The notes under the pieces are model-generated. The model saw only the letters and a program-made list of their open reading frames with translations, searched no databases and was not told where the DNA came from. A program made the position numbers and the translations under genes. 64,000 bases of DNA, from contig NZ_MCGV01000001.1 of the NCBI RefSeq assembly GCF_001705235.1, forward strand, positions 1,488,001-1,552,000, written 5' to 3'. Below, one piece after another: positions 12,971 through 59,743 of the stretch. The stretch is from Clostridium pasteurianum (GTDB lineage: Bacteria; Bacillota; Clostridia; Clostridiales; Clostridiaceae). Within the stretch, counting starts at the first letter, position 1, and every line of letters begins with the position of its first letter.

Positions 12971-13210
12971 GCGAAATAATAGTATTTTGAAACATTAAAT
13001 AAAAATCATAAGACTAAGTTTCAAATTATAAAAATACTAAGAAATTTTAATAACTCGCTGAAGAAATTGCTCAGACAAATTAAAATTTTTAAGTCTTTTT
13101 ATAATTTAAAACAAGTCTTATTGAATTTTATTTAAATCGTTTCCAAAATACTATTATTTCGCTTTAAAAAAAGGCAGGGTAAATTTTTCTCAACTTCACT
13201 GCGAAAAATA
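12971..13210 (-). repeat. BHR copy 1 (full)
   Basis: The long hairpin spans 12971-13162 with termini GCGAAATAATAGTATTTTG and its complement, and an apical loop containing the reverse complement of TCTGAG and CAGCGAGTTATT. The short hairpin of the element is at 13172-13210 (GGGTAAATTTTTCT pairs with GCGAAAAAT). The element reads on the minus strand: short hairpin, linker, long hairpin. Arms match along nearly the whole 80-base length. Confidence 0.85.
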
Positions 13211-13262
13211 ATATATTAATTTATTTAAAAATCAAATAATTTAATCATAACCATCGGCTTAG

Positions 13263-13559
13263 TGAAGTTGTAAGATAAAAGTAGACATTGGATTTAACCA
13301 CCAATTGTCTACTTTTTTTAATATAAAATATAAGAGAATGATGTGATGTTTATGGTAATACTTAAAGGAACAAAAAAATAAAATGAACCTTTGAAGAAAA
13401 AAAGAACTTTCCTAATTTTCTAAATAAATATGTTGAATATTTCAATAATGAAAGACCAGCATATACATTAGGATACTTAAGCCCATTTGAATACAAGGTA
13501 AAAAATAGATTTCGATAATGGTGGTTTTTATAGTTGTCTACTTTAGTTTGACAACTTCA
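13263..13559 (+). mobile_element. Internally deleted IS3-family insertion remnant
   Basis: The ends are inverted repeats: TGAAGTTGTAAGATAAAAGT at the left and the complement of TGAAGTTGTCAAACTAAAGT at the right, both continuing into AGACA. Both flanks are CTTAG, a five-base target duplication. Between them is only the 3' end of a transposase reading frame. The copy has lost most of its transposase and cannot move by itself. Joining the flanks restores a hairpin, ACCATCGG-CTTAG-CCGGTGGT, so the element entered its loop. Confidence 0.8.
13387..13518 (+). pseudogene. IS3-family transposase OrfB, C-terminal fragment
   Basis: The frame reads TFEEKKNFPNFLNKYVEYFN followed by NERPAYTLGYLSPFEYKV and a stop. 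The pattern YxxxYNNxRPHxALGYxSPxEY is the C-terminal hallmark of DDE transposases of the IS3 family. The catalytic D, D and E region is missing and a stop (TGA) precedes the fragment in frame. A further remnant (LKGT) is readable just upstream in another frame. Confidence 0.8.
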
Positions 13560-13592
13560 CTTAGCCGGTGGTTTCCTTTGTTACACAATGAC

Positions 13593-13800
13593 GAAAATTC
13601 CGCAAGTACGGAGGAATTTTTTCCTTGCATCACCATAGAAGGCGAAGGAATAGTACTGAAGGAACGATTTAAAAAAATCCTAATAAATCTTGGTAAAGAA
13701 ATTGGAAAATACTTAGATATTTCAATTTGTCTGAGCTTCTTCCCAGCGAGTTATTGAAATATCTTAGGTTTTTATGATTTTCATACCCTTGATTTATGGA
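13593..13800 (+). repeat. BHR copy 2 (truncated at the 3' end)
   Basis: The short hairpin AAAATTCC...GGAGGAATTTT and CCTTGC linker are followed by a long-hairpin left arm, the conserved loop TCTGAGCTTCTTCCCAGCG and a decayed right arm. The right terminal repeat is missing. It ends about 30 bases before copy 3 begins, in the same orientation. Confidence 0.8.
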
Positions 13801-13833
13801 TAAAACCAACTATGCACTACAACGCTTCACGCC

Positions 13834-14076
13834 CAAAATTCCGTAGGCACGGAGGAATTTTTTCCTTGTATCACCATATAAGGCGAAATAATAGTGCTGA
13901 AGGAACGATTTAAAAAGAATCCAATAAATCTTGGTAGAAAAATAGCAAAATACTTAGATATTTCAATTTGTTTGAGTATTTTCCCAACGAGTTATTGAAA
14001 TATCTTAGGATTTTGCCATTTTTCTACCTTAGATTTATGGATTCTTTTTAATGTTCCAAAGCACTATTATTTTGCC
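13834..14076 (+). repeat. BHR copy 3 (full)
   Basis: The short hairpin starts AAAATTCCGTAGGCACGGAG, then the long hairpin spans 13882-14076 with termini GGCGAAATAATAGTGCT and AGCACTATTATTTTGCC. The right end lies six bases from the stop codon of the chemotaxis receptor gene. The middle of the stem contains TAGAAAAATAGC in one arm and its near complement in the other, different from copy 6 where both arms have TATGAAAATCAC. Confidence 0.88.
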
Positions 14077-14082
14077 CTTTTT

Positions 14083-15795
14083 TTATATTTCAAATCTTTG
14101 TATCATCACATTAAGCTTCTGTGAAAGTTCCGCTTGACTCTGAGAAGACTTTGCAACCTCAGTAATGGCAGCGGTAATTTCTTTAACACTAGAAAGTATT
14201 TCTTCCGTACCGTTAGCAGATCCTTCTGCTACTGCAGATACATTTTGCATAGCACCACTTATCTGGACAGTTGCTTCATTCATCTGACTTGAAGATGTTC
14301 CAAATCTTTTTATGAGTTCAAACATAAATTGAGCATCTTTTTCATATTGAATTCCTGTTTTCATAAGAAGTTCATAACTAGGTTTTACACTATTATCCAT
14401 GAATTCCAAAACATTTTGTCCACTTTCAGCAAGCTTTTGAACTGCTGCTTCAACCTGCACTACCATATTTTGAATATTAGTAACAGCATCCGCTGCTTGT
14501 TCTGCAAGTTTGCGCACTTCATCAGCAACAACAGCAAAGCCCTTGCCTTGTTCTCCCGCTCTTGCGGCTTCTATTGCCGCATTTAAAGCAAGTAAATTTG
14601 TTTGCTCAGCAATACTTCCAATAGAATCAGCCATTGTTTTTACTTCTTTAACAACCTTAGATTCTTCAATTGCTTTTAAAATATTAGAGCGACTTTCGTC
14701 ATAAATTGAATTACCTTTTTCTATACTTTTTGAAGCTTCATTCTTTATTTTAACAGCACGATTTGCTATTTCCTGCACCGAATTTTCAGCTGAATTAGCA
14801 TCCTTTGAAAGCACATCTGCCGTAGCATTTATTTCTTCAGCAGAAGCACTTACTTCTTCTGTAGTTGCACTTAAATCTTGAACTCCATTAGATATTTGAC
14901 CTGTAGATTCATTTACTGATTCCATTTTAGCTGATATCTCTTCTGTAGTTGCAGAAAGTTCCTCACTGGTAGCACTTATGTCATTTGCACTATTCATTAT
15001 CTCAATTATTAGCTTCTTTATATTATCTTTTGCTCCAGTTAATTCTCTTAGCATATTGCCAATTTCATCTTTTGAAGTCACTTGAATAGACTTAGTTAAA
15101 TCACCTTTGCCCAAGTTCTCAGCAAAAGATAGCGCTTCTTTAACTTGTTTTGAAATCATAGTTGCTATAAATGTACCCAGTAAAATAGCTACTGCAAAAC
15201 TTAATATCACTATAAATCCTGTAATAATGAAAGAACTCTTATACGTTGAATTACTTTCTTCATAAGCTTGATCAGCTTGATTTACATTATCTTTTATTAA
15301 CTTGTCCATATCTGAATATATCTTTTTTCTCGTTGCGGTAACCTTAAAATAATTATCAGAAGCAGCTGCATAATTATTTTCATCCACATATTTTACTACT
15401 GAATTACTTAGCTCCATATATAAACTATAATCCTTCTTAATGTCAGAAAAATTACTTTTTTCTGATTCTTTAAGTGATGATTTTTCATATGTATTTATAA
15501 GTTTATTATTGCTTAAAAACAACTTATTAATGTCATTCTTTATAGTATCTTTTTCATTAATATTCCTTTGATACACAAGCTTTAATAAATCAGCACGTAT
15601 ATCAGCAAAATTTTGTTTTATACTAGTCAAAGTTTCTACAGAAGCTAAATTATACTCATACATGGACTTTGCATTAGAATTAATTTTATTCATATCAAAC
15701 AAACTAAGCATTCCTACAATTCCTACTAACACCGCGACCACAATAAAAGCTGATACTAATTTTTTTGCTATTTTAAGATTTTTAAACCACCTCAT
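14083..15795 (-). CDS. Methyl-accepting chemotaxis protein
   Basis: About 570 residues. A first membrane segment ([20 protein letters not shown]) and a second ([20 protein letters not shown], about residue 190) enclose a roughly 150-residue helical ligand domain of the four-helix-bundle type. HAMP follows, then the coiled-coil signalling domain with the invariant tip [20 protein letters not shown] and [14 protein letters not shown]. It senses an unknown extracellular ligand and signals through CheA/CheW. I prefer the second ATG (MRWFKNL) because GGGGG sits ten bases before it; the first ATG (15804) has it only one base away. The gene is flanked on both sides by BHR repeats and appears monocistronic. 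Confidence 0.95.
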
Positions 15796-15959
15796 AATTT
15801 TCATTCCCCCATAATTTAATTCCGTAAAAATTTATACAACATATAAAAATATTATATCTAAAATTTAAGCCAAATACTAAATGTAAGTTATAGGCCTTTT
15901 ACCTTACAATTCAGCATTAAACAATATTTTATAGATAATGCATTATAAAAATTTATATC

Positions 15960-16192
15960 CAAGATTTCTTATACATAGAGGAATTTTTTTCCTTGCACCA
16001 CCATATAAGAAGAAGTAATAGTGCTGAAGGAACAATTTTAAAAATCCTAATAAGTCTTGGTAGAAAAATAGCAAAACACTTAGATATTTTACCGTTATCA
16101 TACACAAGATTTAAGCTAAACCTATAACATGCTGACGAGCAAAGCAATGTCAGCGCTCCTTAGCTTAATTATGACTGATACACATTGTTTAC
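15960..16192 (+). repeat. BHR copy 4 (left half plus replacement segment)
   Basis: A decayed short hairpin and CCTTGC linker lead into the long-hairpin left arm (AGAAGTAATAGTGCTGAAGG), which stops at CTTAGATATTTT. A different segment follows, with TAAGCTAA (16112) paired to TTAGCTTA (16160) and an inner GCTGAC/GTCAGC. It is repeated almost exactly in copy 5. Confidence 0.8.
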
Positions 16193-16196
16193 GCCT

Positions 16197-16432
16197 AAAA
16201 TTCCGTAGGCACGGAGGAATTTTTTTCTTGCACCACTGTATAAGGAGAAGTAATAGTGCTGAAAGAACAATCTTAAAAAATCCTAATAAGTCTTGGTAGA
16301 AAAATGGCAAAACACTTAGATATTTTACCGTTATCATACACAAGATTTAAGCTAAACCTATAACATGCTGACGAGCAAAGCAATGTCAGCGCTCCTTAGC
16401 TTAATTATGACTGATACACATTGTTTACGCCC
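16197..16432 (+). repeat. BHR copy 5 (tandem duplicate of copy 4)
   Basis: A 236-base direct repeat of copy 4, including the replacement segment with TAAGCTAA (16348) and TTAGCTTA (16396). The few differences fall mainly in the BHR-derived half. The short hairpin is better preserved here than in copy 4. Confidence 0.85.
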
Positions 16433-16674
16433 AAAATTCCGTAGACACGGAGGAATTTTTTCCTTGCACCACTGTAGAAGGAGAAGTAATAGTGCTTTGG
16501 AACGATTTAAAAAGAATCCAATAAATCTTGGTATGAAAATCACAAAATACTTAGATATTTCAATCTGTCTGAGCTTTTTCCCAGCGAGTTATTGAAATAT
16601 CTTAGGATTTTGTGATTTTCATACCTTAGATTTATGAATTCTTTTTAATGTTCCAAAGCACTATTACTTCTCCC
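16433..16674 (+). repeat. BHR copy 6 (full)
   Basis: A short hairpin (AAAATTCCGTAGACACGGAG) leads to a long hairpin at 16479-16674 with termini GGAGAAGTAATAGTGCTTTGG and the exact complement. The conserved loop is TCTGAGCTTTTTCCCAGCG. The right end is immediately adjacent to the stop codon of the ABC permease gene. Confidence 0.9.
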
Positions 16675-18933
16675 TTATTCTCTATTTTTAAGTGCTTCTG
16701 CCATACTAATTTTATTTATTCTTTTTACATGCAGCAAATTTATTACTAAATAAGTTACAATTCCAACTGCAACAATTGCTACAAATAAATATGACGGTAT
16801 CCATATTTCCATATACCCATTTACCTTGTTAAGTGCAAATGAGAAACAATATTTAAGTGCTAAATAATCAAGTGGAAGCCCTAAAATAAGTGACAGAATG
16901 ACTACAATGGTTGTTGCATTAAGATACAAACTCCTTATTTCTTTTGCTTCATATCCAAACACCTTCATATAAGAAATGTACAGAGAATTTTTATCAATTA
17001 CTATCTTTGTAAGTATATACATAAGTGCTATATAAATAAGTATTGCTGCAATAATACACATATTAGCGCTGCTGCCAACAGAAGAAGTCATCTGCTGCCC
17101 CAATTTAACCATATCCTTAGAAGTGATGACAGATGCCAAATTCTTGCTGCTAATATTAAGCTTTTTGTTTGAAAAATATCCATTATAATAACTTTCATCG
17201 TACTTAAGCAACCTATTTAACTGTTTGTTATTCATAAATACTGCAAATCCAGATGAATAATGTATACTTCCAATTACCTTCAAATAGTAAGTATCGTTAG
17301 TATATGGATCTAAAAATTTTACTCTGTCGCCAACCTTATTACCAAGCTTTTTCATAACCCCATCAGACATGTAAATTCCTTTTTCTTTGTCACTTAAGGA
17401 TAAGTTTTTTAAATATTTAGATTTACTGCTTATTCCATAAAAAGAAACATCTAAATTTCTATTTCCTGCCTTGTAATATGTTTTTAGTGAATAAACCGTA
17501 AAACTTTCTGCACTGTTTTTCCTAACAACTTCAGGAGCTTTTAAAATGTACTGATAATTAGATACGCTGGTATTCTGAATATCTTCTACATAATGATTTA
17601 TTATTGGCATCATGGCGAGTCCAAATAGTAAAATAACACTTCCAAGAAAAATGCCAATGAAGAGCATAAAATAGTTTGCTTTGTTTTGGAGTATAACTCT
17701 AAGACGAAATCTTTTTACAAATTTAAAAGGAGGTAATTTCACTGGCTTGCCATTAGAATGTTTCTTTAAATCCTTCTTTAGAAATTGAAGTGGAGATGCT
17801 TTTAACTTTAATGAAATTACTGATATATTTATAAAAATCATAATACATATAGGAATAATTGTGGTAAGCATAAGTGCTTCACTGTTTAATTTTATTGTAC
17901 ATGGTGGAAGACTGTAGCTATTGTAATACATAGCCTTAAAGGTTGGAGGGAGAACAAAATATCCAATAATGTTGCCTATAACAGCACTTATTATTGTAAC
18001 AAATATAGGCATCCTCATATAATGGCCTAATATTTCTCTTTTGCTGTAGCCATTAGAAAGCAGTGTTCCTATTATCTGTGATTCTTCATCAATAGTGCTC
18101 ATGACAATAATTGCAAATACAAATGCCATAATTGCAATTGTAATGTAACAAAAAACCTTCATTGACGGTACATCTGAACCCATATCCTCCTGCACAAAGG
18201 AAATGCTCTGGTTATTAGCTGCAGTACAAAAATCCGTTAAACCTGCTCCATTTTTCACTAAACTTTTTTCAATTTTATTTGATAAATCCTTGCTTTTTCT
18301 TTCATTTAAATTTCTATTTTTGAAATAATAAGAATAGTTATAAACTAAATTGCTGTCATTAAAGTTTTTAAAATCTTCCTTTGACACAACAGCGATGCCA
18401 AAGTACTTTGTTTCCATCATAAGATTTGAGTTTTTTTCAAATAAGGAACTGTAATTTGGAAGCGAAATTGTACCCGTTATTTTATAGTACTTTCCTTTAA
18501 TTTTAAGCTTATCACCAACTTTAAGAGAATTGTTTCTTGCAAAAAGCCTGTCTAGTGCTATTTCATATTTGCCTTCCGGAAGCCTTCCTTCAATAACTGT
18601 TGGAATATCAATATCTTTTTTACTTTCATAAATTCTAAGTTTTGTGCTTTTCAAAATTGGTTCATTGGAATAATAATTTTCATAAATATTAGCCCCTAAT
18701 TTTTCAGTTTTTGTTATTGTTTCTTTAGGAATTTTAAAATAAGAAGTAAAAAGTCCATTCTCTACCTTGCAATTCACTCTGTTGTTTTCAAAGGCTTCTT
18801 TTATTCCATCTGCTGTTGATAGAAAACCTGAAAGCATAGCTACTGAGGCTATCATTATAACTGCTACTGCTATATACCTTCCTGCATTATGTTTTAAATC
18901 ACGAATAAGTCTTTTATTTAATGGATTTCTCAT
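16675..18933 (-). CDS. ABC transporter permease, MacB/FtsX-type
   Basis: About 750 residues. One N-terminal membrane segment (YIAVAVIMIASVAMLSGFLS) is followed by an extracellular domain, then three segments (around 265-380), a second extracellular domain, and another segment set at the C-terminus (about 650-740). This duplicated FtsX layout, with two periplasmic-type domains, is typical of long clostridial MacB/LolC-like permeases. The start is ATG 18933, with AGGTGA overlapping the stop of the ATPase gene. It forms an operon and presumably a complex with that ATPase. The exported substrate (peptide, lipid or antibiotic) is unknown. A BHR repeat begins right after the stop codon. Confidence 0.9.
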   Translation of the reverse strand: MRNPLNKRLIRDLKHNAGRYIAVAVIMIASVAMLSGFLSTADGIKEAFENNRVNCKVENGLFTSYFKIPKETITKTEKLGANIYENYYSNEPILKSTKLRIYESKKDIDIPTVIEGRLPEGKYEIALDRLFARNNSLKVGDKLKIKGKYYKITGTISLPNYSSLFEKNSNLMMETKYFGIAVVSKEDFKNFNDSNLVYNYSYYFKNRNLNERKSKDLSNKIEKSLVKNGAGLTDFCTAANNQSISFVQEDMGSDVPSMKVFCYITIAIMAFVFAIIVMSTIDEESQIIGTLLSNGYSKREILGHYMRMPIFVTIISAVIGNIIGYFVLPPTFKAMYYNSYSLPPCTIKLNSEALMLTTIIPICIMIFINISVISLKLKASPLQFLKKDLKKHSNGKPVKLPPFKFVKRFRLRVILQNKANYFMLFIGIFLGSVILLFGLAMMPIINHYVEDIQNTSVSNYQYILKAPEVVRKNSAESFTVYSLKTYYKAGNRNLDVSFYGISSKSKYLKNLSLSDKEKGIYMSDGVMKKLGNKVGDRVKFLDPYTNDTYYLKVIGSIHYSSGFAVFMNNKQLNRLLKYDESYYNGYFSNKKLNISSKNLASVITSKDMVKLGQQMTSSVGSSANMCIIAAILIYIALMYILTKIVIDKNSLYISYMKVFGYEAKEIRSLYLNATTIVVILSLILGLPLDYLALKYCFSFALNKVNGYMEIWIPSYLFVAIVAVGIVTYLVINLLHVKRINKISMAEALKNRE

Positions 18934-18942
18934 AATAATCAC

Positions 18943-19641
18943 CTACCATTCTAGCTTGCTTGCTGGCATTATATTTTCATTTTCATATTCTTTAATTATT
19001 TTGCCATCACGCAGCTTTAAAACTTTATGAGCCATATTTTTTATAGCGTCATTATGAGTTACTATTATAATTGTATTTTTATACTTTTGATTTACATTTT
19101 CTATGAGTTCTAATATTTCCTTTGATGTACTATAATCAAGGGCTCCTGTTGGCTCATCACAAAGTAAAATTCCTGGATTTTTAACAAGTGCTCTTCCAAT
19201 AGCGCATCGCTGCTGCTGTCCACCTGATAATTGATTAGGGAATTTATCCTTATGTTCCCAAAGCCCCAAAGTTTTAATCAAATCATCAATATCAAGAGGT
19301 GACTTACTTAAATATTCACAAACCTCTATATTTTCTTTTACAGAAAGGTTTGGTATCAAATTGTAAAATTGAAATACAAAGCCAAGATTATTTCTTCTAT
19401 AAAGTGAAATTTCTTTTTTACTCATATGTAACATTGATTTCCCATCTACAGTTATTTCACCATCATCAAATCCTTCAATACCACCTATGATATTAAGAAG
19501 AGTAGATTTTCCTGAACCAGAAGGTCCAAGCAAAACACATATTTGTCCTTTTTCCACCGAACAATTTATTCCTTTTAAAACCTGAATCCTACTTCCATCT
19601 TCTCCATAATATTTGATTAAATTTTTTACTTCTAAGTACAT
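18943..19641 (-). CDS. ABC transporter ATP-binding protein, LolD/MacB type
   Basis: 232 residues. Walker A is LLGPSGSGKSTLLNIIGG, the Q-loop lies in LGFVFQFYNLIPNLSVKENI, the signature is QLSGGQQQRCAIGRAL, Walker B is ILLCDEPTGALDYS and the switch His is in IIVTHNDAI. PTGALD after Walker B is the MacB/LolD subtype. It energises the downstream permease, whose start lies nine bases after the stop. The upstream region has two promoters, one with palindromic sites and another with Fur-like boxes. Confidence 0.95.
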   Translation of the reverse strand: MYLEVKNLIKYYGEDGSRIQVLKGINCSVEKGQICVLLGPSGSGKSTLLNIIGGIEGFDDGEITVDGKSMLHMSKKEISLYRRNNLGFVFQFYNLIPNLSVKENIEVCEYLSKSPLDIDDLIKTLGLWEHKDKFPNQLSGGQQQRCAIGRALVKNPGILLCDEPTGALDYSTSKEILELIENVNQKYKNTIIIVTHNDAIKNMAHKVLKLRDGKIIKEYENENIMPASKLEW

Positions 19642-19660
19642 ACTTCCTTCCCCCTTTTAT

Positions 19661-19730
19661 ATATAATCAACATATGAACATATGAGCTCTTATTCATATG
19701 TATTATAAACAAATAGCATAACCTTGTCAA
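19661..19730 (-). promoter_or_regulatory. Promoter and palindromic operator of the MacB-type ABC operon
   Basis: On the minus strand TTGACA (19725-19730) and TATAAT (19702-19707) have a 17-base spacer. Immediately downstream lie three CATATG-type half sites: two CATATGA copies at 19671 and 19679, and the opposing TCATATG at 19694-19700. This is the position where a TetR- or MarR-type repressor would bind; no cognate regulator is in the operon. Confidence 0.75.
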
Positions 19731-30537: not shown

Positions 30538-30626
30538 TTTTATTTTTTTGGGCATGCAACCGTTATATTTTAATATGAACGATTACATGTCTTTTTGAAT
30601 TATTATTCTCATTTATTAGCTTTCAA

Positions 30627-30822
30627 TTCAAATTTTCGGTAGCGGAGCAGACGAAAATCTTCCTTGCCATTACCCATTATGTGAAGTAACAGTAGTTTGA
30701 AAACGATTTAAATAAAACTCAATAAGACTTTGCCTCAAATTATAAAAAGACTTAGAAGTTTCAATTTGTCTGAGCTTCTTTTCAGCAAGTTATTAAAAGT
30801 TTATGCAGGGATAAACTTTTAA
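30627..30822 (+). repeat. BHR copy 7 (truncated)
   Basis: Short hairpin ATTTTC...GAAAAT with CCTTGC, then the left arm of the long hairpin (GTGAAGTAACAGTAGTTTG) and the conserved loop GTCTGAGCTTCTTTTCAGC. The right arm is replaced by a small hairpin, AAAAGTTTAT-GCAGGG-ATAAACTTTT. Confidence 0.85.
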
Positions 30823-31018
30823 TTCAGATTTCCCGCAGCGGAGCGGAAGAAAATCTTCCTTGTCTTTACCCTTTATGTGAAGTAACAGTAGTTTGAGAAC
30901 AATTTAAATAAAACTCAATAAGACCTTGCCTAAAATAATGAAAAGACTTAGAAGTTTCAATTTCTCTGAGCTTCTTTTCAGCAAGTTATTAAAAGTTCAT
31001 TCATGCATAAACTTTTAA
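30823..31018 (+). repeat. BHR copy 8 (truncated, tandem)
   Basis: About 85-90% identical by eye to copy 7 with a period of about 198 bases. The short hairpin stem differs (GATTTCC...GAAAATC) and the replacement hairpin is AAAAGTTCAT-TCATGC-ATAAACTTTT. The loop has one change (TCTCTGAG). Confidence 0.85.
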
Positions 31019-31264
31019 TTCAGATTTTCGGTAGCGTAGCGGAAGAAAATCTTCCTTGCCCTTACCTCTTATGTGAAGTAACAGTAGTTTGAGAACGATT
31101 TAAATAAAATTCAATAAGACTTTGCCTCAAATTATAAAAAGGCTTAGATGTTTCAATTTGTCTGAGCTTCTTTTCAGCGAGTTATTGAAACTTCTTAGTC
31201 TTTTTATAATTTGAGGCTTAGTCTTATGAGTTTTATTTAATGTTTCAAACTACTGTTACTTCAC
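31019..31264 (+). repeat. BHR copy 9 (full)
   Basis: Short hairpin ATTTTC...GAAAAT, CCTTGC linker, and a full 192-base long hairpin at 31073-31264 with termini GTGAAGTAACAGTAGTTTG and the exact complement. The stop codon of the ABC permease gene at 31256-31258 lies inside the right terminal repeat. Confidence 0.92.
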
Positions 31265-31963
31265 ACACCTTTTTATAAATACAAAAATTAGTATAATAGA
31301 ATAAATTACTGCTGCAGCTAAAGTATACATAACCCCAACTGAATTCTGCAAATTCACATAGTCTATTGAACTAAGCTTGTCTATTGTTAAATATACTGGT
31401 GGCAAAATTACAGTTATCCACTTAAATACAGGTAAGACTTGAACAAGAGGATTTCTAATAATAGACACAAGTAAAATAGCACTCAAAAATAGCACTACAA
31501 TTTTTTTATCTTTAATTATTCTAGAATTAAACAAGCCTCCAAGTGCTGTCCCCAAAAGTCCAATAACAGCATGACTCATAAAAGCAATAACAATATCTAA
31601 AGTATATATTTTTCTAATAAAACATCCTAATAAAATCGGATAAAAAACCGTAATAACTGATAATATAAGTATTAAAAAATATACAAAAGCTATCTTACCC
31701 AAATAATATAAATTTTCTTTTTTAAAATGCAAAATTGTAAGCTGCTGCTGAACAATGTCTTCACTATCTACAAAAGTAACCGAAATCCACGCTGCAATTA
31801 TATATATTATTATACAAGTTGCAGTATAAGATGTCATTACATAGCATGGTTTAACCGCATACACAACACCCATTAAAATCATATAAGCTAAAAGTGGAGG
31901 TATATACTTATTAGACCTTTTGTAATCTTTGAAAAAATATATCATTAAACTTTTAATACTCAT
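31256..31963 (-). CDS. ABC-2-type transporter permease (membrane subunit)
   Basis: 235 residues with about six hydrophobic segments and no extracellular domain, typical of a small exporter membrane subunit. It is encoded directly after, and nearly overlapping, the ATPase gene. I start at MSIKSLMIYFF (31963); an earlier in-frame ATG lies inside the ATPase gene. The last two codons (GTG AAG) and the TAA stop are part of the right end of a BHR repeat, so the C-terminus has been set by that insertion. The substrate is unknown. Confidence 0.8.
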   Translation of the reverse strand: MSIKSLMIYFFKDYKRSNKYIPPLLAYMILMGVVYAVKPCYVMTSYTATCIIIYIIAAWISVTFVDSEDIVQQQLTILHFKKENLYYLGKIAFVYFLILILSVITVFYPILLGCFIRKIYTLDIVIAFMSHAVIGLLGTALGGLFNSRIIKDKKIVVLFLSAILLVSIIRNPLVQVLPVFKWITVILPPVYLTIDKLSSIDYVNLQNSVGVMYTLAAAVIYSIILIFVFIKRCVK

Positions 31964-31971
31964 AATATAAT

Positions 31972-32802
31972 TTACCCTTCCTTCACTGAAACAATGCTGC
32001 ATCCCATATTGATTAAATGCATTATGCTGCTGTCACTGTACTTTGGGTCTACTAATATATTAGCTAGCCTTCCATTCTGACTTGCATTAAGTAATCCTTT
32101 AAAGCTTTTGACTAAATTTAAGTCAAAATCTTCACTTATTTTAAAAACTATAAACATATTTTTGTGTGTATCTTGAGAAAAGCATAACATTTTAGCATTT
32201 TGTATTTTCACAGTTTTATCCGCTAATTTTTCAACTAAATACGCTTCATGACAGGCTAAAACCATTGCAATTCCTTCTGATTTCAGTTTTTCTAATATAC
32301 TAATATTTTTTTCTTGTGAATCAACATCCTGACCTGAAAGTGGCTCGTCCAACAATAATATATCTGGTTTTGACAACATAGCTTGTATAACTGCGACCTT
32401 TTGTATGGTTCCCTTCGATAAATATTTTATTTGTGTATCCTTCATTGAATTTAAATTAAAATCGTTAAAAAGCTCTTTTTCCACCTTATCTATGTGATTA
32501 TTAGATAAGCCTTCAATCTTTCCCATATGTAATATATATTCATGAGGAGTAAAATTAAGTTTTGGAAATCTATCTGGAACATAACCAATATTTAATTTAA
32601 GTCTATCTCCTTTAACAATTCTTCTTCCCCCTGATACTTTGCTAAGTCCAGCTATTATTTTAAGTAAAGTACTTTTTCCTGCACCATTTTTACCAATAAC
32701 AGCTAAAGTCTGCCCCTTAAAAATGCTTAAATTTATATTGCTTAAAATTTTCTTATTTCTATAACTTTTACTGACATCTTCTAATTTGATTAATTCCTCC
32801 AT
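31972..32802 (-). CDS. ABC transporter ATPase, drug/export type
   Basis: 276 residues. Walker A is VIGKNGAGKSTLLKIIAG and Walker B is ILLLDEPLSGQDVD. The signature is unusual: YLSKGTIQKVAVIQAML, with LSKGT in place of LSGGQ, a variant common in exporter ATPases of Firmicutes. The switch His is in VLACHEAYLV. The last about 70 residues are an extra C-terminal domain. The start at MEELIKL has no ideal ribosome binding site (AAAGG about 13 bases upstream), so the start is uncertain. It is paired with the downstream membrane gene. Confidence 0.88.
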   Translation of the reverse strand: MEELIKLEDVSKSYRNKKILSNINLSIFKGQTLAVIGKNGAGKSTLLKIIAGLSKVSGGRRIVKGDRLKLNIGYVPDRFPKLNFTPHEYILHMGKIEGLSNNHIDKVEKELFNDFNLNSMKDTQIKYLSKGTIQKVAVIQAMLSKPDILLLDEPLSGQDVDSQEKNISILEKLKSEGIAMVLACHEAYLVEKLADKTVKIQNAKMLCFSQDTHKNMFIVFKISEDFDLNLVKSFKGLLNASQNGRLANILVDPKYSDSSIMHLINMGCSIVSVKEG

Positions 32803-45497: not shown

Positions 45498-45724
45498 ATA
45501 AAAATAAACGGCAAAGGAACACCCTTGCCGTCTTAACTGCAATCTTGTGTACCTTGTAGCGCTCCACTTACCTAATGACAATTAAGTGACAACCCTTCAC
45601 ATATTTTGTGAAAAGCCAGCGAATAAATTTGCCAATTTATTTGCTTCGGCTAAAAGTCCCTTTCACTGCTTATCATAATTTGCCAACTCCAAACAGTTAC
45701 TCTTAACTTAAAGCACCTCTACAA
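45498..45724 (-). promoter_or_regulatory. Lysine riboswitch (L-box) of lysA
   Basis: The aptamer lies at 45554-45724 on the minus strand. P1 pairs TTGTAG with CTACAA. The core has AGAGGTGC, AAGAGTAACTG, CAGTGAAAGGGAC, GCCGAAGC, GCTGGC, TTGTCA and GGAGCGCTACAA, the conserved L-box elements. The intrinsic terminator ACGGCAAGGGTGTTCCTTGCCGT-like hairpin sits at 45508-45531 with a T-rich tail. Bound lysine should favour termination. Confidence 0.95.
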
Positions 45725-45813
45725 AAGGTCTATTTCTATTGTTTTTAATTCTACCACACAATGCATAAATATACAATACGTTTTTTTAACTTCATTCATA
45801 ATCTAATAATATT

Positions 45814-46052
45814 GCGAAGTAATAGTATTTTGAAACATTAAATAAAAATCATAAGACTAAGCTTCAAATTATAAAAATACTAATAAATTTTAATAACTCG
45901 CTGAAAAAAAGCTCAGACAAATTAAAATTTCTAAGTCTTTTTATAATTTGAAGCAAGTCTTATTGACTTTTATTTAAATCGTTCCCAAAATACTATTTAC
46001 TTCGCTTAAAATAAAAGCAAGGTGAATTTTTCTCCGCTTCCCTGCGAAAAAT
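45814..46052 (-). repeat. BHR copy 10 (full)
   Basis: The long hairpin spans 45814-46005 with termini GCGAAGTAATAGTATTTTG and its near-complement. Its short hairpin lies at 46018-46052 (GTGAATTTTTCTC/GCGAAAAAT). It reads on the minus strand, short hairpin first. Confidence 0.88.
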
Positions 46053-46089
46053 AGTATAGACATCAAACTAACTCTATGTAATTGATGTC

Positions 46090-46209
46090 CAAAATTCCGT
46101 AGGTACGGAGGAATTTTTTCCTTGCTTTACTCCTAAATCTAAATAACAGTGCTTTGTAACATTAAAAAAGCTCTAATAAATAATGTTACAAAGCATTGTT
46201 ATTTAGATT
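46090..46209 (+). repeat. BHR copy 11 (internally deleted)
   Basis: The short hairpin AAAATTCC...GGAGGAATTTT and CCTTGC linker are followed by a short version of the long hairpin: AATCTAAATAACAGTGC and TTTGTAACATTA paired with their complements, with no conserved loop. The right end lies three bases from the M18 aminopeptidase stop codon. It faces copy 10. Confidence 0.75.
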
Positions 46210-46212
46210 CGT

Positions 46213-47514
46213 TTACAAATTGAAAAATTCTTCAAATGATTTTTCTACATAAACATGATCTGAAACTCCGCACAATTCTCTTATTGAATGCATAGCCAAA
46301 AGTGCAGTACCAATATCCACAGTTCTTATTGCAGTGTGAGTAGAAGTTATAGGTCCTATGGTACTTCCACCTCTTTCATCTGATCTATTTGTGAACTTTT
46401 GACATGGTACTCCTGCCATTTTGCATATTTCATCATATACACCTATTGAGCTACTATCTGAGGTATACTTTTGAGCAGCACTTATTTTTATAACTGGTCC
46501 TTCATTTATATGTGGTCTTAAAACTGGATCTGCTTTTTCTCCTTTATTAGGATGTACTGCATGTGCAGAATCTGCTGATATCATAAAGGATTTATAAAGA
46601 GCTCTAAAAAAGTCTTCCCTATCTCCTCCAAATGCTAAAACAATTCTCTCTAAGGTATCAGATAAAAACTGAGAATCAGCTCCTTGTTTAGTTGCACTTC
46701 CAATTTCCTCATTATCAAAGCATGCTAAAACATTAGTGGATTCGGAAGTTTTAGCATTTATCATAGCCGTAAGACCAGCATGCACCATTTCCATGTCATC
46801 AAGTCTACTGCTGGATATAAATTCATTATTTACTCCCATAATGCATCCCTTGTCATACTCATACAGGAACAGATCAAAATCAAGTATATCAGAAACATCA
46901 ACCTGAAGTTCATTTGCAATAATTTTAAGAAGATAGTTTTCCTTTTCAAACTTTTCACTTATAAGCCCCAAAATTGGTAAAGTATCAATTTGAGGATTGA
47001 TATTTACACCACTATTTACACTTCTATTCATATGTATGGCTAAATTAGGAATTATAATTAAAGGTCTTTTTATATTAATTAATTTTGTTTGCGGAAAAAG
47101 TACATTGTTGCCCTTTATCATAACCCTTCCAGCTATAGAAAGTGGTCTATCAAACCATGTATTTAATATTGGTCCACCATATACCTCTGTGTTTAACTTT
47201 ATATATGAATTTTCAGAAATAATTTCCGGATTTGGTTTTATCCTAAACGTAGGTGAATCCGTATGTGCCCCTACTATTTTGAATCCTTTTTTAGCTATTA
47301 AACCACTTCCTACGTTAAAAGCAATTACAGCTGAGTCATTTCTTTTAACAAAATATTTTCCATTTTTATTAAGCTCCCACTTATTCTCCTCACTTAGTTC
47401 AGTAAAACCACTATCTTTTAGTGTTTTTTCAATATTTCTAACTGAGTGAAATGGTGATGGACTATCATATATAAAATCTATTAGTTCCTTGGCAAATTTA
47501 ATTTCATTTTGCAT
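46213..47514 (-). CDS. apeB: M18-family aminopeptidase
   Basis: 433 residues. It removes N-terminal residues, typically acidic ones, using two zinc ions. Metal-ligand regions are visible: VGAHTDSPTFRIKPNPE, the SSRLDDMEM segment with catalytic Asp, ACFDNEEIGSAT, and ADSAHAVHPN. The family also has the late STIGPITSTHTAIRTVDIG block. GGAGG precedes ATG 47514; upstream in-frame TTG lies in the untranslated region. A BHR copy sits just after the stop codon. Confidence 0.93.
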   Translation of the reverse strand: MQNEIKFAKELIDFIYDSPSPFHSVRNIEKTLKDSGFTELSEENKWELNKNGKYFVKRNDSAVIAFNVGSGLIAKKGFKIVGAHTDSPTFRIKPNPEIISENSYIKLNTEVYGGPILNTWFDRPLSIAGRVMIKGNNVLFPQTKLINIKRPLIIIPNLAIHMNRSVNSGVNINPQIDTLPILGLISEKFEKENYLLKIIANELQVDVSDILDFDLFLYEYDKGCIMGVNNEFISSSRLDDMEMVHAGLTAMINAKTSESTNVLACFDNEEIGSATKQGADSQFLSDTLERIVLAFGGDREDFFRALYKSFMISADSAHAVHPNKGEKADPVLRPHINEGPVIKISAAQKYTSDSSSIGVYDEICKMAGVPCQKFTNRSDERGGSTIGPITSTHTAIRTVDIGTALLAMHSIRELCGVSDHVYVEKSFEEFFNL

Positions 47515-47537
47515 TAGTTGTTCCTCCAATTATAAAT

Positions 47538-50220: not shown

Positions 50221-51408
50221 ATGCTTGTAAAATTTATAGTTTCAAAATTTATAAAAGATTATAGCAATATAGATAATAAAAAAGTTAGAGAAAATTATGG
50301 AATCCTCAGCAGTATAATGGGCCTCATAATAAACTCTATTCTTTTTATAATAGAACTTACTATTGGTATTTTAATAAATAGTATAGCTGTAATAGCCGAT
50401 TCTTTTCATAATCTTGCAGATGTAAGTGCTTCAGTTATAACACTTATAGGGTTTAAATTATCAAATAAACCAGCAGATAAAAAACATCCTTTTGGTCATG
50501 GCAGAATAGAATATCTATCTTCGCTATTAATATCTGCAATAATAATTCTTGTTGGTGTTGAATTCGTTAAAACTTCATTTTCAAGAATTTTAAAACCAGA
50601 AGCAGTTAATTTTAATATGATTTCATTTATAATAATTTTAATTGCAATACCTCTTAAATTATGGTTAAGTTATTTTAATAAAACCATCGGGAAAGAAATC
50701 GATTCCTCAGCTCTAAAAGCTTCAGGTGCTGATGCTTTAAACGATGTTTACATACTTTCAAGTGTAATCTTATCACTTTTAGTATCTGTTTTTTCTACAA
50801 TATCTATAGATGGATATGTTGGTATTTTCATAGGTGCAATGATAATCTGGTCTGGTGTATCATCAATGCGAGAAACTATTGATCCACTACTAGGTCAAGC
50901 TCCTGATCCTGCTCTCGTAAAGGCCATAAAGAAAATGGCACTTGAATGTGATGTGATTTTAGGTATACACGATTTAATTATACACAATTATGGACCAGGC
51001 AGAATTATGATTTCTTTCCATGCTGAAGTTCCATACAATATTCCAATTATGACTTTACATAGTAAAATAGATGAAGTCGAAAACAAGATTTCTGAAACTT
51101 TAGGAATATTTGTAGTAGTTCATATGGATCCTCTGTTAATTGGATCTCCTGAAGTTGATGAAGCCAAAAAATACGTATCAAAAATATTAAAAAATGATTT
51201 TCCAGCTGTAGGTTCATTTCATGATTTTAGAATAGTCGGAAGCGGCGAGGACAAAAAATTAATTTTTGATGTAGTAGTTCCTTTTGATAAAAAAATAACG
51301 CCTGAAAAATTTGATGATTTAGTCGATGCTATAAAAAATGACATACAAAAAGAACACCCTCATTACAACTGCGTAATTACAGTAGACAGAGACTATACCG
51401 GCGCATAA
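50221..51408 (+). CDS. Cation diffusion facilitator (CDF) family transporter
   Basis: 395 residues with six membrane segments and a C-terminal cytoplasmic domain. VIADSFHNLADVSASVITLI carries the transmembrane Asp/His metal site; KKHPFGHGRIEYLSS is the family loop; SGADALNDVYILSS completes the second site. It exports zinc, iron, cobalt or manganese in exchange for protons; specificity is unclear. The start ATG has GGGAG eight bases upstream. The TAA stop overlaps the left end of a BHR repeat. Confidence 0.93.
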   Translation: MLVKFIVSKFIKDYSNIDNKKVRENYGILSSIMGLIINSILFIIELTIGILINSIAVIADSFHNLADVSASVITLIGFKLSNKPADKKHPFGHGRIEYLSSLLISAIIILVGVEFVKTSFSRILKPEAVNFNMISFIIILIAIPLKLWLSYFNKTIGKEIDSSALKASGADALNDVYILSSVILSLLVSVFSTISIDGYVGIFIGAMIIWSGVSSMRETIDPLLGQAPDPALVKAIKKMALECDVILGIHDLIIHNYGPGRIMISFHAEVPYNIPIMTLHSKIDEVENKISETLGIFVVVHMDPLLIGSPEVDEAKKYVSKILKNDFPAVGSFHDFRIVGSGEDKKLIFDVVVPFDKKITPEKFDDLVDAIKNDIQKEHPHYNCVITVDRDYTGA

Positions 51409-51647
51409 CGAAGTAATAATATTATGGAACATTAAATAAAACTCATAAGTCTAAGCCCCAAATTATAAAAATACTAAGGAATTTTAATAACTCGACTTTG
51501 GTCTCAAACAAATTAAAATTTCTAAGTCTTTTTATAATTTGGGGCAAGACTTATTGAGTTTTATTTAAATCGTTTCCATAATATTATTACTTCGTTTAAT
51601 TTAATAAAAGCAATGATGATTTTCTTCTGCTTTGCTCCCGAAAATCT
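51407..51647 (-). repeat. BHR copy 12 (full)
   Basis: The long hairpin is at 51407-51596 with termini AACGAAGTAATAATATTATGG and its complement, so this copy has a different terminal stem (ATAATATTATGG on both arms). The short hairpin lies at 51610-51647 (ATGATTTTCTTC/CCGAAAATC). The apical loop is more diverged (CTCGACTTTGGTCTC) than in other copies. The left end begins within the stop codon of the CDF gene. Confidence 0.88.
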
Positions 51648-51776
51648 AGGATCAAGAGCTTTCCCCCATTATTATATATATATACTATTATCCTACCTTA
51701 TCAACCATTAGCATTCTTCAAATATAAAATGCTATATCACATAAACAAAGCGCCTAATCTTGATGTATTTTCAGCT

Positions 51777-53489: not shown

Positions 53490-53498
53490 CAAAAAACA

Positions 53499-53544
53499 CC
53501 TCCAGAATTATTTTTACCGTTCAAAATAAAAATTATTCTAGAGG
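53499..53544 (-). promoter_or_regulatory. Hairpin that would bury the azoR ribosome binding site
   Basis: On the minus strand CCTCTAGAATAATTTTT (53528-53544) pairs with AAAAATAATTCTGGAGG (53499-53515) around a 12-base loop, giving about 16 of 17 pairs. The GGAGG is the azoR ribosome binding site. Confidence 0.7.
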
Positions 53545-53591
53545 AATATTTTATAAGACACAATGTTAGAACTTTAATTCGTTATATTTAG

Positions 53592-55775: not shown

Positions 55776-57595
55776 GCCGAACTCTCCTTTACAATTTTCA
55801 TAAATTCATCCCCACTTAATGTTTCTTTTTCAAGAAGAATTTCTGCAATATTATCAAGAAGTTCCCTATTAGTCTGCAAAATATCTTTTGCCTTATTATG
55901 TGCTTCTTTTATTATTCTTAATACTTCTTTATCAGCTTCATATTCAACCTCATTGCTGCAATTTTTAACCGGTCTTCCATCTAAGTACCTATTGCCTGCT
56001 GATTCAAGTGCCATCATATCGAATTTATCAGTCATTCCATATATTGTGACCATATTTCTAGCTGTTTGTGTAGCCTTTTCTATATCATTAGATGCTCCTG
56101 TAGAAATAGTTCCAAAAACAACTTCTTCTGAAGACCTTCCACCGAGCATAACACATATTTGATCTGACATCTCTTCCTTAGTTACTAAATACTTCTCTTC
56201 TTCTGGAAGCTGCATAGTATATCCCAAGGCTCCCATTGTTGTAGGTATAATCGTTATTTTATGTACTGGATTTGTATGTCTTAAAAGAGCAGCTACAAGT
56301 GCATGACCAACTTCATGATATGCAACAGTTTTCTTATCCTGATCTGATAATATTTTATCTTTTTTCTCCTTGCCTGCAACTATAACTTCAACTGCCTCAT
56401 CTAAATCTTCCTGTATAACTTTACTTCTGCCCCTCTTTACAGCTAAAAGTGCAGCTTCATTTACTATATTAGCAAGATCTGCTCCAACTGCACCTGAAGT
56501 TGCCTTAGCAATATCTTCAAGAGATATATCCTCGGACATTTTTACATCTTTAGAGTGAACTTTAAGAATTGCCTCTCTACCTTTTAGGTCAGGTCTATCA
56601 ACAATAACTCTTCTATCAAATCTGCCAGGTCTTAAGAGAGCTTTATCAAGTACTTCTGGTCTATTAGTTGCAGCTAAAATTACAACTCCCTTTGACGAAT
56701 CAAAACCATCCATCTCAGCCAAAAGTTGATTTAAAGTCTGTTCTCTCTCATCATTTGAGCCACCAACTGCGCTTTCCCTACTTTTACCTATTGCATCTAT
56801 TTCATCTATAAATATTATGCATGGTGCCTTTTCTTGAGCCTGCTCAAATAAGTCTCTTACCCTTGCAGCTCCCATTCCTACAAACATTTCAACAAAATCA
56901 GAACCCGACATTGAAAAAAATGGTACTTTAGCTTCTCCTGCTACTGCTTTAGCTAAAAGGGTTTTACCTGTTCCTGGCGGTCCAACTAAAAGTGCTCCTT
57001 TAGGCAGTTTAGCACCTATCTCAGTATATTTATTAGGATTATGAAGAAAGTCTACAATCTCAATTAAAGATTCTTTGGCTTCCTCCTGACCCGCAACATC
57101 ATCAAAGGTTTTCCCGGTTTCATTTTCAGCATAAAGCTTTGCATTATTTTTGCCAAATGACATGACACCGCCGCCAAATTTTTTATCAAGCTTTCCAAAT
57201 AATATTTTCCCCAAAAATGTCAATAAAATTATTGGCAAAATCCAATTAATAACAAAACTTTTTATAGGATCATCATTCTGTATTTGAGGCTTAATTTCTG
57301 CCCCAGAATCTTTAAGCTCATTCTTTAAATCTGAATCGTCTATTCTTCCAGTATAAAGAATCTTTTTCTGATATCCTGCATTATCCTTAGGTACTATCAC
57401 TATTTTCTGCTGCGACACGTTAACCTGCGAAATCTTTTTTGCCTTAAGTAAATCAAGAAATTTGTTATAACTTATTTCTTCTGTTCTTATAGAGGATGCC
57501 GCATAATTAAACAATAAAACGAAAACTATCACACCTAATGTATAATAAATGGCATATTTAAATTTTTTATCTTTAAAATCTTTATTATCAAACAT
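55724..57595 (-). CDS. ftsH: ATP-dependent zinc metalloprotease FtsH
   Basis: 623 residues. Two membrane segments (about 15-30 and 110-130) precede the AAA module: Walker [21 protein letters not shown], Walker [15 protein letters not shown], arginine region [20 protein letters not shown]. The M41 protease site is [12 protein letters not shown] with a downstream zinc Asp region. It degrades membrane and some soluble proteins and is involved in stress and sporulation. A typical length and intact. Confidence 0.97.
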
Positions 57596-57670
57596 CCCAC
57601 TTCCTCCTTGCTTGTTATACTATAATAACACAATTTACGTCCAAAAGTTATTAATAATTTTAAAATTATA

Positions 57671-59254
57671 CTATTTTGCAACAATAACCTTTTTATAATT
57701 AATTACTTTCCCTACATTGTTTATATAAACATTTTTTTTAGCCGCTAAAAAGCCATGTAATTTAACATTAGCAATTCCATTGTAGAAATCACCAGCCTCA
57801 GAAAACTTAGCCTCAATTACAATTTTACCACTTAAATCTACATATCCCCATTTTTTAGTTCCAAATTTTCCTACGTTAAATGCTGCAAGACCATCATGAA
57901 AGTCTTTTACCATATTAAATTTAGGCTGTATTACAATTTCACCATTTAAATTTATAAATCCCCATTTACCATTTATATTAACTCGTGCAACTCCATCATA
58001 GAAACTTCCTATATAATCATACTTTGGTTCTATAATAATTTTTCGCTTTGAACTATCCATATATCCATATTTACCCTTATCACTTATATATCTCATAAGA
58101 TTAAGTTCCATATTAGTATCAAAATTCATATCGTTTGAATTGTCGTTTTCTGTTACCCTAGAAATAACTACCTCGCTATTTTGTGACTTATAATCTAAAC
58201 TTATAGTTTTGTTAAAAGTAATAGCCTTTATTTTATCAATAGAAACCTTATCATCATCAACTAAAAAACTTATATATGTGTCATAAATTCCTCCTCCTCT
58301 ATACAATTCCTTAGCATCATTTCTCGGCACATTAATTGAAAATGAACATAACTGTGCTGTAAATCGTACAGCCCACTTTTTCCATATAACATCTGCCAGA
58401 AATATTTCTTTTTCAAAATCGTATTTACTAGGATTCAATCTTATTTTTCCTGCACTAATTAGTGAAATGTTTTTAATATTTTCATTAAATTTATCTTCAT
58501 CATGAAAATCAAATTTATTAACACAAATTGAATAAATGGGCATAAAATTGTCATCTGCCATTATAAATAAACTCCCCATATCAATGCTTATAATTTTATC
58601 CATTAGCATAAGTTTACCATATAAAACATATTCCCTATCTTTTTCACATATCTCTTTTACATGTAAATTATCAATGATTGAAAATAATCCGTATACTTTA
58701 GGCACATTTATTTCCTTTATTATATTCCAATCATTGTTTAATATAATTGAAGATGTTTTTATATCGTAATTATCCTTGCTAAATTTAATTTTACCAAGAG
58801 GAATAGGTTTTATATTAGTTATCCTGTTTTTGAACTCATCACAACTTTCAAATGCTTGTCTATATAAATTTACACAATATATTTTATAATTCTCTCCATT
58901 AATGCCTATATTTAAACTTTCATTATCAATATATACTTTCTCACCTATAGAAACAAATTTACAGTACACATCATATTTGTCATTAAAATCAATGTTACCA
59001 TTTAAAGTACTGCTACTTATCATACAAAAAAAATATTGACTTTTCATTTTTTCTACTGAATCAATGCCATACCACTCAATTTTAACATAGCAAAAACCGT
59101 ATTCACTGTCATAACTTTCCTCCTCAAGCGCAGCTTTTCCTATATTCACAGACTTTATACTCTTTATGCGTTTTTCATAATCATCATATTTTTCAAAAGC
59201 ATCTCTTTTGAGCGATTCCTGAAGTTTACTAAGCTCGATTTTACTATCCATCAT
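57671..59254 (-). CDS. WG-repeat protein
   Basis: 527 residues. The C-terminal third has three WG (KWG) repeats: KYGYMDSSKRKIIIEPKYDY, KWGFINLNGEIVIQPKF and KKWGYVDLSGKIVIEAKF, each followed by an F-x-DG-A motif. The N-terminal 350 residues are repetitive beta-rich units containing QSFEACDEFKNRITNIKPI-like blocks (IKPIPLGKIKF, ISLISAGKIRL), spaced about 110 residues apart. No signal peptide is present. WG proteins probably form beta-propellers; their role is unknown. The start is at ATG 59254, with GGGGG eight bases upstream. Confidence 0.8.
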   Translation of the reverse strand: MMDSKIELSKLQESLKRDAFEKYDDYEKRIKSIKSVNIGKAALEEESYDSEYGFCYVKIEWYGIDSVEKMKSQYFFCMISSSTLNGNIDFNDKYDVYCKFVSIGEKVYIDNESLNIGINGENYKIYCVNLYRQAFESCDEFKNRITNIKPIPLGKIKFSKDNYDIKTSSIILNNDWNIIKEINVPKVYGLFSIIDNLHVKEICEKDREYVLYGKLMLMDKIISIDMGSLFIMADDNFMPIYSICVNKFDFHDEDKFNENIKNISLISAGKIRLNPSKYDFEKEIFLADVIWKKWAVRFTAQLCSFSINVPRNDAKELYRGGGIYDTYISFLVDDDKVSIDKIKAITFNKTISLDYKSQNSEVVISRVTENDNSNDMNFDTNMELNLMRYISDKGKYGYMDSSKRKIIIEPKYDYIGSFYDGVARVNINGKWGFINLNGEIVIQPKFNMVKDFHDGLAAFNVGKFGTKKWGYVDLSGKIVIEAKFSEAGDFYNGIANVKLHGFLAAKKNVYINNVGKVINYKKVIVAK

Positions 59255-59355
59255 TCTCTCATCCCCCATTTTAAATAAATACTACAGTGAATATCTTATT
59301 CGTCTTTATATACTATTATTAAAATTCCTTTTTTATACATTTGTGAATTAACATC

Positions 59356-59431
59356 GATGAAGTAACATTAAAAAAATTCTATAAAGCTAAGGTAAAAAAA
59401 TCATAAAATCCTAAGAGTTTTAATAACTCGC
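59356..59431 (-). repeat. BHR copy 13 (decayed fragment)
   Basis: GAAGTAACATTA joins directly to a right-arm-like segment that reads AAAATCCTAAGAGTTTTAAT and ends AACTCGC. The terminal stem is partly deleted. It is inverted relative to copy 14. Confidence 0.6.
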
Positions 59432-59504
59432 AAAGCTTGCGAAATTTAAATAATTGATTTAATTTAATATCTATATTATTTGATCTTTAAATAAGTTAAT
59501 ATAT

Positions 59505-59743
59505 TATTTTTCGCAGAGAATCGGAGAAAAATTTACCTTACTTTTATTCTAAGCGGAGTAATAGTATTTTGGAAACGATTTAAATAAAATTCAATAAGAC
59601 TTGCTTCAAATTATAAAAAGACTTAGAAATTTTAATTTGTCTGAGTTTTTTTTCAGCGAGTTATTAAAATTCCTTAGTCTTTTTATAATTTGAGGCTTAG
59701 TCTTATGATTTTTATTTAATGTTTCAAAATACTATTATTTCGC
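59505..59743 (+). repeat. BHR copy 14 (full)
   Basis: The short hairpin ATTTTTCGC...GGAGAAAAAT is followed by TACCTTAC and the long hairpin at 59553-59743 with termini GCGGAGTAATAGTATTTTG and the complement. The conserved loop is TCTGAGTTTTTTTTCAGCG. Unlike most copies it is not next to a stop codon. Confidence 0.9.

What the first reader, a model, noticed from the sequence alone, without database searches (positions are those of the whole stretch)
12971..59743. A dense family of bipartite hairpin repeats (BHR), about fourteen copies in 47 kb
Seven full and seven damaged copies share a layout: a short hairpin (stems such as AAATTCC/GGAATTT), CCTTGC, about 20 bases, and a long hairpin of 190-195 bases with termini like GCGAAGTAATAGT. 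The apical loop, close to GTCTGAGCTTCTTTTCAGCG, is the best-conserved part. One copy per 3-4 kb, if typical, predicts hundreds per genome. No family I know has this combination. It could be a non-autonomous mobile element, a structural RNA or both.
Basis: partly seen in the sequence, partly recalled or inferred. Interest (0 to 1): 0.88.

Follow-up and report, generated by a model that had tools for sequence, protein, structure and literature searches.

The report
Hairpin repeats inserted at stop codons
A clostridial genome carries roughly three hundred copies of a long DNA hairpin that mostly sit, in one orientation, exactly where genes end, which suggests an unusual mobile element that settles at gene ends and may replace the natural stop signals for transcription.

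Summary
The repeat is real: 7 full and about 7 partial copies in the window, at least 150 in the genome (a cap), and 21 full copies in a systematic 300-kb sample, i.e. about 310 per chromosome. No Rfam family matches at gathering score. It is dense in two sister species, not found in a third, and present in other genera. Orthologs end within about eight codons of the same place. At two convergent gene pairs a relative without the repeat has a bidirectional terminator where this genome has a repeat unit running from stop to stop. In one sister species two head-to-head repeats travel as a 527-582 nt unit. No clear target duplication was found. Best reading: a non-autonomous, hairpin-ended mobile element that inserts at gene 3' ends, often in place of the terminator, much as described for IS1272. 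No transposase was identified. Arms covary strongly; the apical loop is the landing site of an IS110-family element.

The parts
12967..13214 (-). full BHR; left half of a two-BHR composite 12967-14079; right end not at a stop codon
   Evidence: R1 207.4 bits; pair table
13590..13829 (+). tandem unit with degenerate right arm
   Evidence: R1 108.2 bits; sequence
13831..14079 (+). full BHR; right end 3 nt from the stop codon (14083-14085) of a gene for a methyl-accepting chemotaxis protein; a BHR remnant lies at the same place in C. hydrogenum
   Evidence: R1 235.5 bits
15961..16190 (+). tandem unit 1 of a ~236-nt-period array (approximate ends)
   Evidence: direct repeats D2, D6
16193..16398 (+). 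tandem unit 2
   Evidence: R1 26.1 bits, D6
16429..16676 (+). full BHR; right end overlaps the stop codon 16675-16677 of an FtsX-domain protein; the C. hydrogenum ortholog has its stop at the same codon and no BHR next to it
   Evidence: R1 240.2 bits
30630..30831 (+). tandem unit 1 of 3 (period 196), right arm replaced by a small hairpin
   Evidence: R1 36.6 bits; D3
30826..31018 (+). tandem unit 2 of 3, right arm replaced by a small hairpin (approximate ends)
   Evidence: D3
31019..31268 (+). full BHR; the in-frame stop TAA of the convergent gene 31256-32002 lies inside its terminus
   Evidence: R1 252.7 bits
31160..31179 (+). conserved apical loop
   Evidence: exact match; its core is conserved in copies from five other genera
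45810..46057 (-). full BHR, left half of composite 45810-46211; right end not at a stop codon
   Evidence: R1 228.5 bits
46087..46211 (+). short-form copy (~75-nt hairpin) ending 1 nt from the stop codon of the M18 aminopeptidase gene 46213-47529
   Evidence: R1 66 bits; inverted repeat I14
51404..51650 (-). full BHR; right end overlaps the stop codon (51406-51408) of a cation-efflux gene
   Evidence: R1 219.9 bits
59368..59421 (-). remnant of a second, opposite BHR arm (strand judged by eye)
   Evidence: D4
59501..59747 (+). full BHR; right end not at a stop codon
   Evidence: R1 230.3 bits

Best explanation
BHRs are the end modules of a non-autonomous, hairpin-ended mobile element family. 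The element spreads as a single BHR or as two BHRs head to head (527-582 nt in C. guangxiense). It lands at gene 3' ends with the BHR right end facing the gene, at the stop codon, often in place of the native intrinsic terminator, and without a clear target duplication. The long hairpin then stands as the 3' end of the gene's transcript and presumably takes over termination or protection. Shown: dispersal, polarity, stop anchoring, orthologs without the repeat, covariation. Inferred: a transposase that recognises hairpins or terminators and deletes the stem-loop, as described for IS1272; termination by the BHR.
For: Right end at the stop of a convergent gene: 71 of 96 copies in G000 against 3 of 96 for the left end; 17 of 20 in G003 and 11 of 16 in G002 against 1 of 20 and 0 of 16. 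Systematic sample 17 of 21 against 1 of 21; random positions 901 of 20,000 (4.5%), noncoding ones 281 of 3,691 (7.6%). Orthologs end within about eight codons. At L070 the two convergent stops are 44 nt apart in G001, with a bidirectional terminator starting at -4 and +1 of the stops (ORF coordinates and terminators); in G000 a 907-nt unit with a BHR at each end runs from stop to stop and no native terminator is seen at either stop. At L058 the stops are 23 nt apart in G001 and the C-terminal residues lost from one gene include those over the terminator stem. Recurrent two-BHR unit at nine places in G002, six with a 39-nt spacer, three pairs 93-97% identical. Terminator-hairpin targeting with stem-loop deletion and no duplication is described for IS1272 (PMC4923244, passages).
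Against: No mobilising transposase identified. No strain-level empty site: comparisons are between species (about 66-90% identity), and left boundaries are unclear. Orthologs in G001 have a recognisable terminator in only 6 of 11 BHR-bearing genes against 13 of 44 others, weak support. The IS1272 paper reports insertions in both orientations at a target; BHRs keep one. Site L094c looks like an insertion right after a stop with little or nothing deleted. 25 of 96 copies are not at a stop. Shared words in outer flanks of the G000 pairs are slightly longer than in shuffled pairings (28 of 500 shuffles reach them), so a weak duplication is not excluded.
Confidence: 0.48

Rival explanations
1. BHRs are functional 3'-UTR/terminator modules. 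They spread by recombination between gene ends, or insert at random and are kept only next to stop codons because they terminate transcription or protect mRNA.
For: Convergent genes can each carry their own BHR, so units run stop to stop (8 of 17 pairs have both ends at stops). Where G001 has a terminator at the orthologous gene end it starts between -18 and +18 nt of the stop. Strong arm covariation.
Against: Several copies lie just upstream of the native stop and change the C-terminus, which selection for a terminator does not require. Many G002 units, some 93-97% identical, are just as tight to the stop. Selection alone should leave a wider spread of distances (inference).
Confidence: 0.28
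2. IS200/IS605-like or RAYT-like single-strand transposition of hairpin elements (a REP system).
For: Hairpin ends with covarying terminal bases resemble guide/cleavage-site pairing (recalled).
Against: No Y1 transposase match in G003, which has at least 146 copies; G000 has 3 matches, G001 (no BHR found) has 4. No replication-strand bias: 50 leading and 21 lagging BHR genes against 194 and 70 ORFs.
Confidence: 0.07
3. A structural RNA or RNA-mobilised element (group II-like, retron-like).
For: Covariation and a conserved apical loop across genera.
Against: No RVT_1 match in G000, G002 or G003; no Rfam match at gathering score. DNA hairpins under the same constraint would look alike.
Confidence: 0.1
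4. An IS110-family element with guide RNA drives BHR spread, because it sits in the apical loop.
For: Four of four full-length IS110 copies read lie at the same point of the loop.
Against: REP sequences are reported as targets of insertion sequences (PMC1525189, title and abstract start), so landing there does not imply mobilising them; BHR ends are far from the loop.
Confidence: 0.04

Closest known systems
IS1272 / TnSha1 (IS1182 family), passages of PMC4923244
   Same: Insertion at hairpins that are often terminators, loss of the stem-loop (here seen at two sites), no clear target duplication
   Different: BHRs encode nothing, have ~195-nt hairpin ends, and keep one orientation toward the gene; the transposase was not looked for
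REP/BIME and REPIN-RAYT systems (PMC2817692, PMC3116915: abstract starts in listings only)
   Same: Over a hundred extragenic palindromes per genome, alternating orientation in composites, landing sites for insertion sequences
   Different: BHRs are ~250 nt, anchored at the stop codon itself, and Y1 transposases are not consistently present
MITEs (PMC10969869: abstract start in a listing only)
   Same: Short, non-coding, inverted ends, high copy number
   Different: No clear target duplication; long palindromic subunits; no parent IS found
Stem-loop families Clot-1 to Clot-3 and Clop-1 of C. tetani and C. perfringens (PMC2267715, table passages)
   Same: Stem-loop repeat families of clostridia
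   Different: 31-93 nt, 19-44 copies; sequences not compared here

Membership tests
Rfam RNA families | match at the curated gathering score | tested here: not met
   window: only lysine riboswitch and T-box; 12 of 20 relative loci searched: only rRNA and tRNA-Sec
MITE | short non-coding element with inverted ends in many copies | tested here: met
MITE | target-site duplication | tested here: inconclusive
   none seen by eye in 17 G000 pairs; shared words in 20-nt outer flanks: G000 28 of 500 shuffles reach the observed mean, G002 (9 units) 212 of 500
MITE | ends shared with an autonomous IS | not tested
IS1272-type hairpin-targeting element | insertion at a hairpin/terminator with stem-loop loss | tested here: inconclusive
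   fits at two convergent pairs; 6 of 11 vs 13 of 44 genes with a terminator; L094c does not fit
IS1272-type hairpin-targeting element | no target duplication | tested here: inconclusive
   none clear
IS1272-type hairpin-targeting element | IS1182-family transposase in the genome | not tested
   The genome search cap reached (12 of 12)
REP-RAYT / IS200-IS605 | Y1 transposase present where copies are dense | tested here: not met
   G003: 0 Y1 matches, at least 146 BHR
REP-RAYT / IS200-IS605 | lagging-strand orientation bias | tested here: not met
RT-mobilised element | reverse transcriptase in the genome | tested here: not met
   no RVT_1 match in G000, G002, G003

The most novel reading that the evidence does not exclude
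A mobile element whose integration is directed to translation stop codons in one orientation, either through mRNA 3' ends or terminating ribosomes or through a hairpin-replacing transposase that reads terminator polarity. In effect it swaps the 3' ends of hundreds of genes for a standard long-hairpin tail.
Probability: 0.2. Interest if true: 0.85.

Novelty: new variant of a known kind. Interest (0 to 1): 0.6.

Why it matters
No element anchored to stop codons with fixed polarity showed in the listings of my paper searches; I did not read those papers beyond the passages named. If insertion at stop codons is active, it would reveal a targeting rule and a natural route for replacing terminators across a genome, in a group that appears to include a well-studied solvent-producing bacterium.

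Tried and rejected
Target-copying (the left arm copies the host gene end): terminal bases mirror each other (mean extension 3.02 vs 0.98 shuffled), but at L094a and L094b the G001 orthologs stop before or at the codon where the outer GNG stands in G000, so GNG looks element-encoded; rejected. Positions 4-5, which look host-side, still match above chance; unexplained. Sequence-defined target: the right flank has no strong motif beyond CNC in stop-class copies, only a weak T excess. Integron attC sites: considered from memory, rejected because flanking genes are syntenic with BHR-free G001 at the two regions compared. Autonomous element between BHRs: no transposase-like ORF seen by eye among ORFs of >=60 aa in seven stretches. 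Multi-copy transposases among 727 ORFs of held DNA: none recognised by eye among pairs of >80% identity across loci; the IS110 of L095 was found otherwise. Plasmid and phage collections: no match. Literature on the family itself: nothing recognised in the listings beyond the table passages of PMC2267715.
Full report
WHAT IS THERE. The window is G000:C1:1488001-1552000 of an unnamed 4.68-Mb genome. I aligned the seven full copies (A1) and built covariance model R1 (249 positions, 97 pairs). R1 recovers the seven copies and several damaged ones. In G000 150 of 150 scored candidates match, so 150 is a floor. In 15 evenly spaced 20-kb stretches (300 kb) there are 21 full-length sense copies of >=120 bits, about 310 per chromosome. 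Weaker rows, and mirror hits on the opposite strand, which any long palindrome gives, were left out of that count.

DISTRIBUTION. In the genus (4 genomes held) R1 finds 150, 127, 146 and 0 matches in G000, G002, G003 and G001, out of 150 candidates scored in each. G001 has the chromosome length I recall for C. acetobutylicum ATCC 824; that name is from memory. In the family, 18 of 206 genomes (own included) in 8 of 46 genera match at E<=1e-6, with at most 10 candidates scored per genome and stricter filters. Plasmid and phage collections gave nothing. No Rfam family matches at gathering score in the window or in 12 relative loci; below it, for one tandem array, matches were mainly eukaryotic microRNA and snoRNA families and a few bacterial sRNA and CRISPR-repeat families, all under their gathering scores.

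STRUCTURE. On the 96 sense copies of >=138 bits found in 369,960 bases of G000 chosen around copies (99 weaker or mirror rows left out), stem cells count 7,412 consensus, 1,011 changed on both sides to another Watson-Crick pair, 320 single changes that break the pair, 206 single changes to G.U, 145 single changes to a Watson-Crick pair where the consensus is not one, 67 double changes unpaired and 30 double changes to G.U. An unpaired T.T in facing CTTAG motifs holds in 94 of 96. Copies from five other genera keep mainly the apical part: across 23 sequences TGTYTGAG..GAGTT and the left TTA of CTTAG are (nearly) invariant, while 18 of 22 pairs show changes on both sides; covariation score 0.526 against 0.203 in shuffles, 0 of 500 reaching it. 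Several of those relatives have longer hairpins with other ends; one (L117) has a BHR-type short hairpin and an AAGTAA terminus with an opposite-strand gene 12 nt away. In G000 the closing stem reaches five bases outside AAGTAA and no further.

THE STOP-CODON LINK. In G000 the right end lies within 40 nt of the stop of an open frame of >=100 codons on the opposite strand in 71 of 96 copies; the left end in 3 of 96. With >=90 codons, G003 gives 17 of 20 against 1 of 20, G002 11 of 16 against 0 of 16; repeated fetches of one place were counted once and copies under 120 bits left out. The systematic sample, not chosen by the repeat, gives 17 of 21 against 1 of 21; 11 of these copies were not among the 96, and 9 of those 11 are at a stop. 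Random positions give 901 of 20,000, noncoding ones 281 of 3,691. In 26 of 71 genes the stop is the TAA of the terminus itself, in frame. Homologs were found for 16 BHR genes in the held relatives; apart from two distant ones (L059:2330 and L085, about 40% identity) their stops lie within about eight codons of the G000 stop. So most repeats came to genes whose ends already lay there. One ortholog (13831, C. hydrogenum) carries a BHR remnant at the same place. Genes with BHRs are leading-strand about as often as others (50 of 71 against 194 of 264).

INSERTION OR REPLACEMENT. Two convergent pairs are telling. At L070 the G001 stops are 44 nt apart, with a bidirectional terminator starting at the stops; G000 has a 907-nt unit with a BHR at each end and no native terminator visible at either stop. 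At L058 the G001 stops are 23 nt apart and the C-terminal residues missing in G000 include those over the terminator stem. Elsewhere the picture is mixed: L094c looks like a plain insertion after the stop, and recognisable terminators follow 6 of 11 G001 orthologs of BHR genes against 13 of 44 other genes. Left boundaries could not be fixed by alignment.

UNIT OF SPREAD. In G002 two BHRs lie head to head at nine places read (units 527-582 nt), six of them with a 39-nt spacer. Three pairs of units are 93-97% identical over 413-587 nt, and homology between units mostly stops within about 20 nt of the unit ends. Ten of the 18 outer ends read TAAAAA followed by TATTGCGAAGTAA or GATTGCGAAGTAA (by eye). 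In G000, 48 of 96 copies have a partner-like end within 1,100 nt on the left against 2 of 96 in shuffled sequence. Outer flanks show no clear direct repeats: the shared words match shuffled pairings in G002 (212 of 500 reach them) and exceed them slightly in G000 (28 of 500). The most alike pair of single copies in G000 is 98% identical, so spread was fairly recent.

MECHANISM. No RT match exists in G000, G002 or G003 and no Y1 match in G003, against retro- and IS200/RAYT-type mobility. The behaviour resembles that reported for IS1272/TnSha1: insertion at hairpins, often terminators, blunt loss of the stem-loop, no target duplication (PMC4923244, passages). I therefore claim 'works like', not 'is'. 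The fixed orientation is not explained by a symmetric hairpin target.

THE LOOP AS LANDING SITE. An IS110-family element (PF01548 and PF02371) sits at the same point of the apical loop in G000 (L095) and in three G003 copies; of two partial G002 matches, one (L166) has the same right junction. REP elements are reported as targets of insertion sequences elsewhere (PMC1525189, title and abstract start).

Noticed in passing
L095:5640-7205, L160, L161, L162, L166: An IS110-family element is inserted at the same position of the BHR apical loop in four of four full-length copies read (one in G000, three in G003); a partial G002 copy shows the same right junction.
   Followed up: partly
window 13240-13580: A small element with ~39-bp inverted ends and what looks like a piece of an IS3-type transposase frame (by eye) sits between two BHRs of the composite 12967-14079.
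   Followed up: no
L163:1300-2009: An IS200-type transposase gene (Y1_Tnp) lies next to a BHR unit; its end hairpin seems to cut into the GCAAGG region of a second BHR (by eye).
   Followed up: no
spacers next to BHRs, e.g. left of L078:2063, L094:5301 and L089:1506: A second repeated hairpin with ends like AAGAAGGATAA..TTATCCTTCTT recurs in the spacers between BHRs.
   Followed up: no
window 30609-31268 and 15961-16676: Tandem arrays (periods 196 and 236). In the first, only the last unit has the right arm and the earlier units carry a small ATTAAAAGTTTAT hairpin instead. Mechanism unexplained.
   Followed up: partly
window 45549-45729 and 11779-12021 (both -): Lysine riboswitch and T-box leader; the BHR composite 45810-46211 lies just upstream of the riboswitch.
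   Followed up: no
G000 stop-class copies, terminus positions 4-5: The two bases just outside GNG, which look host-derived, pair with the left arm more often than expected (0.63 vs 0.34 and 0.48 vs 0.39, n=71).
   Followed up: partly
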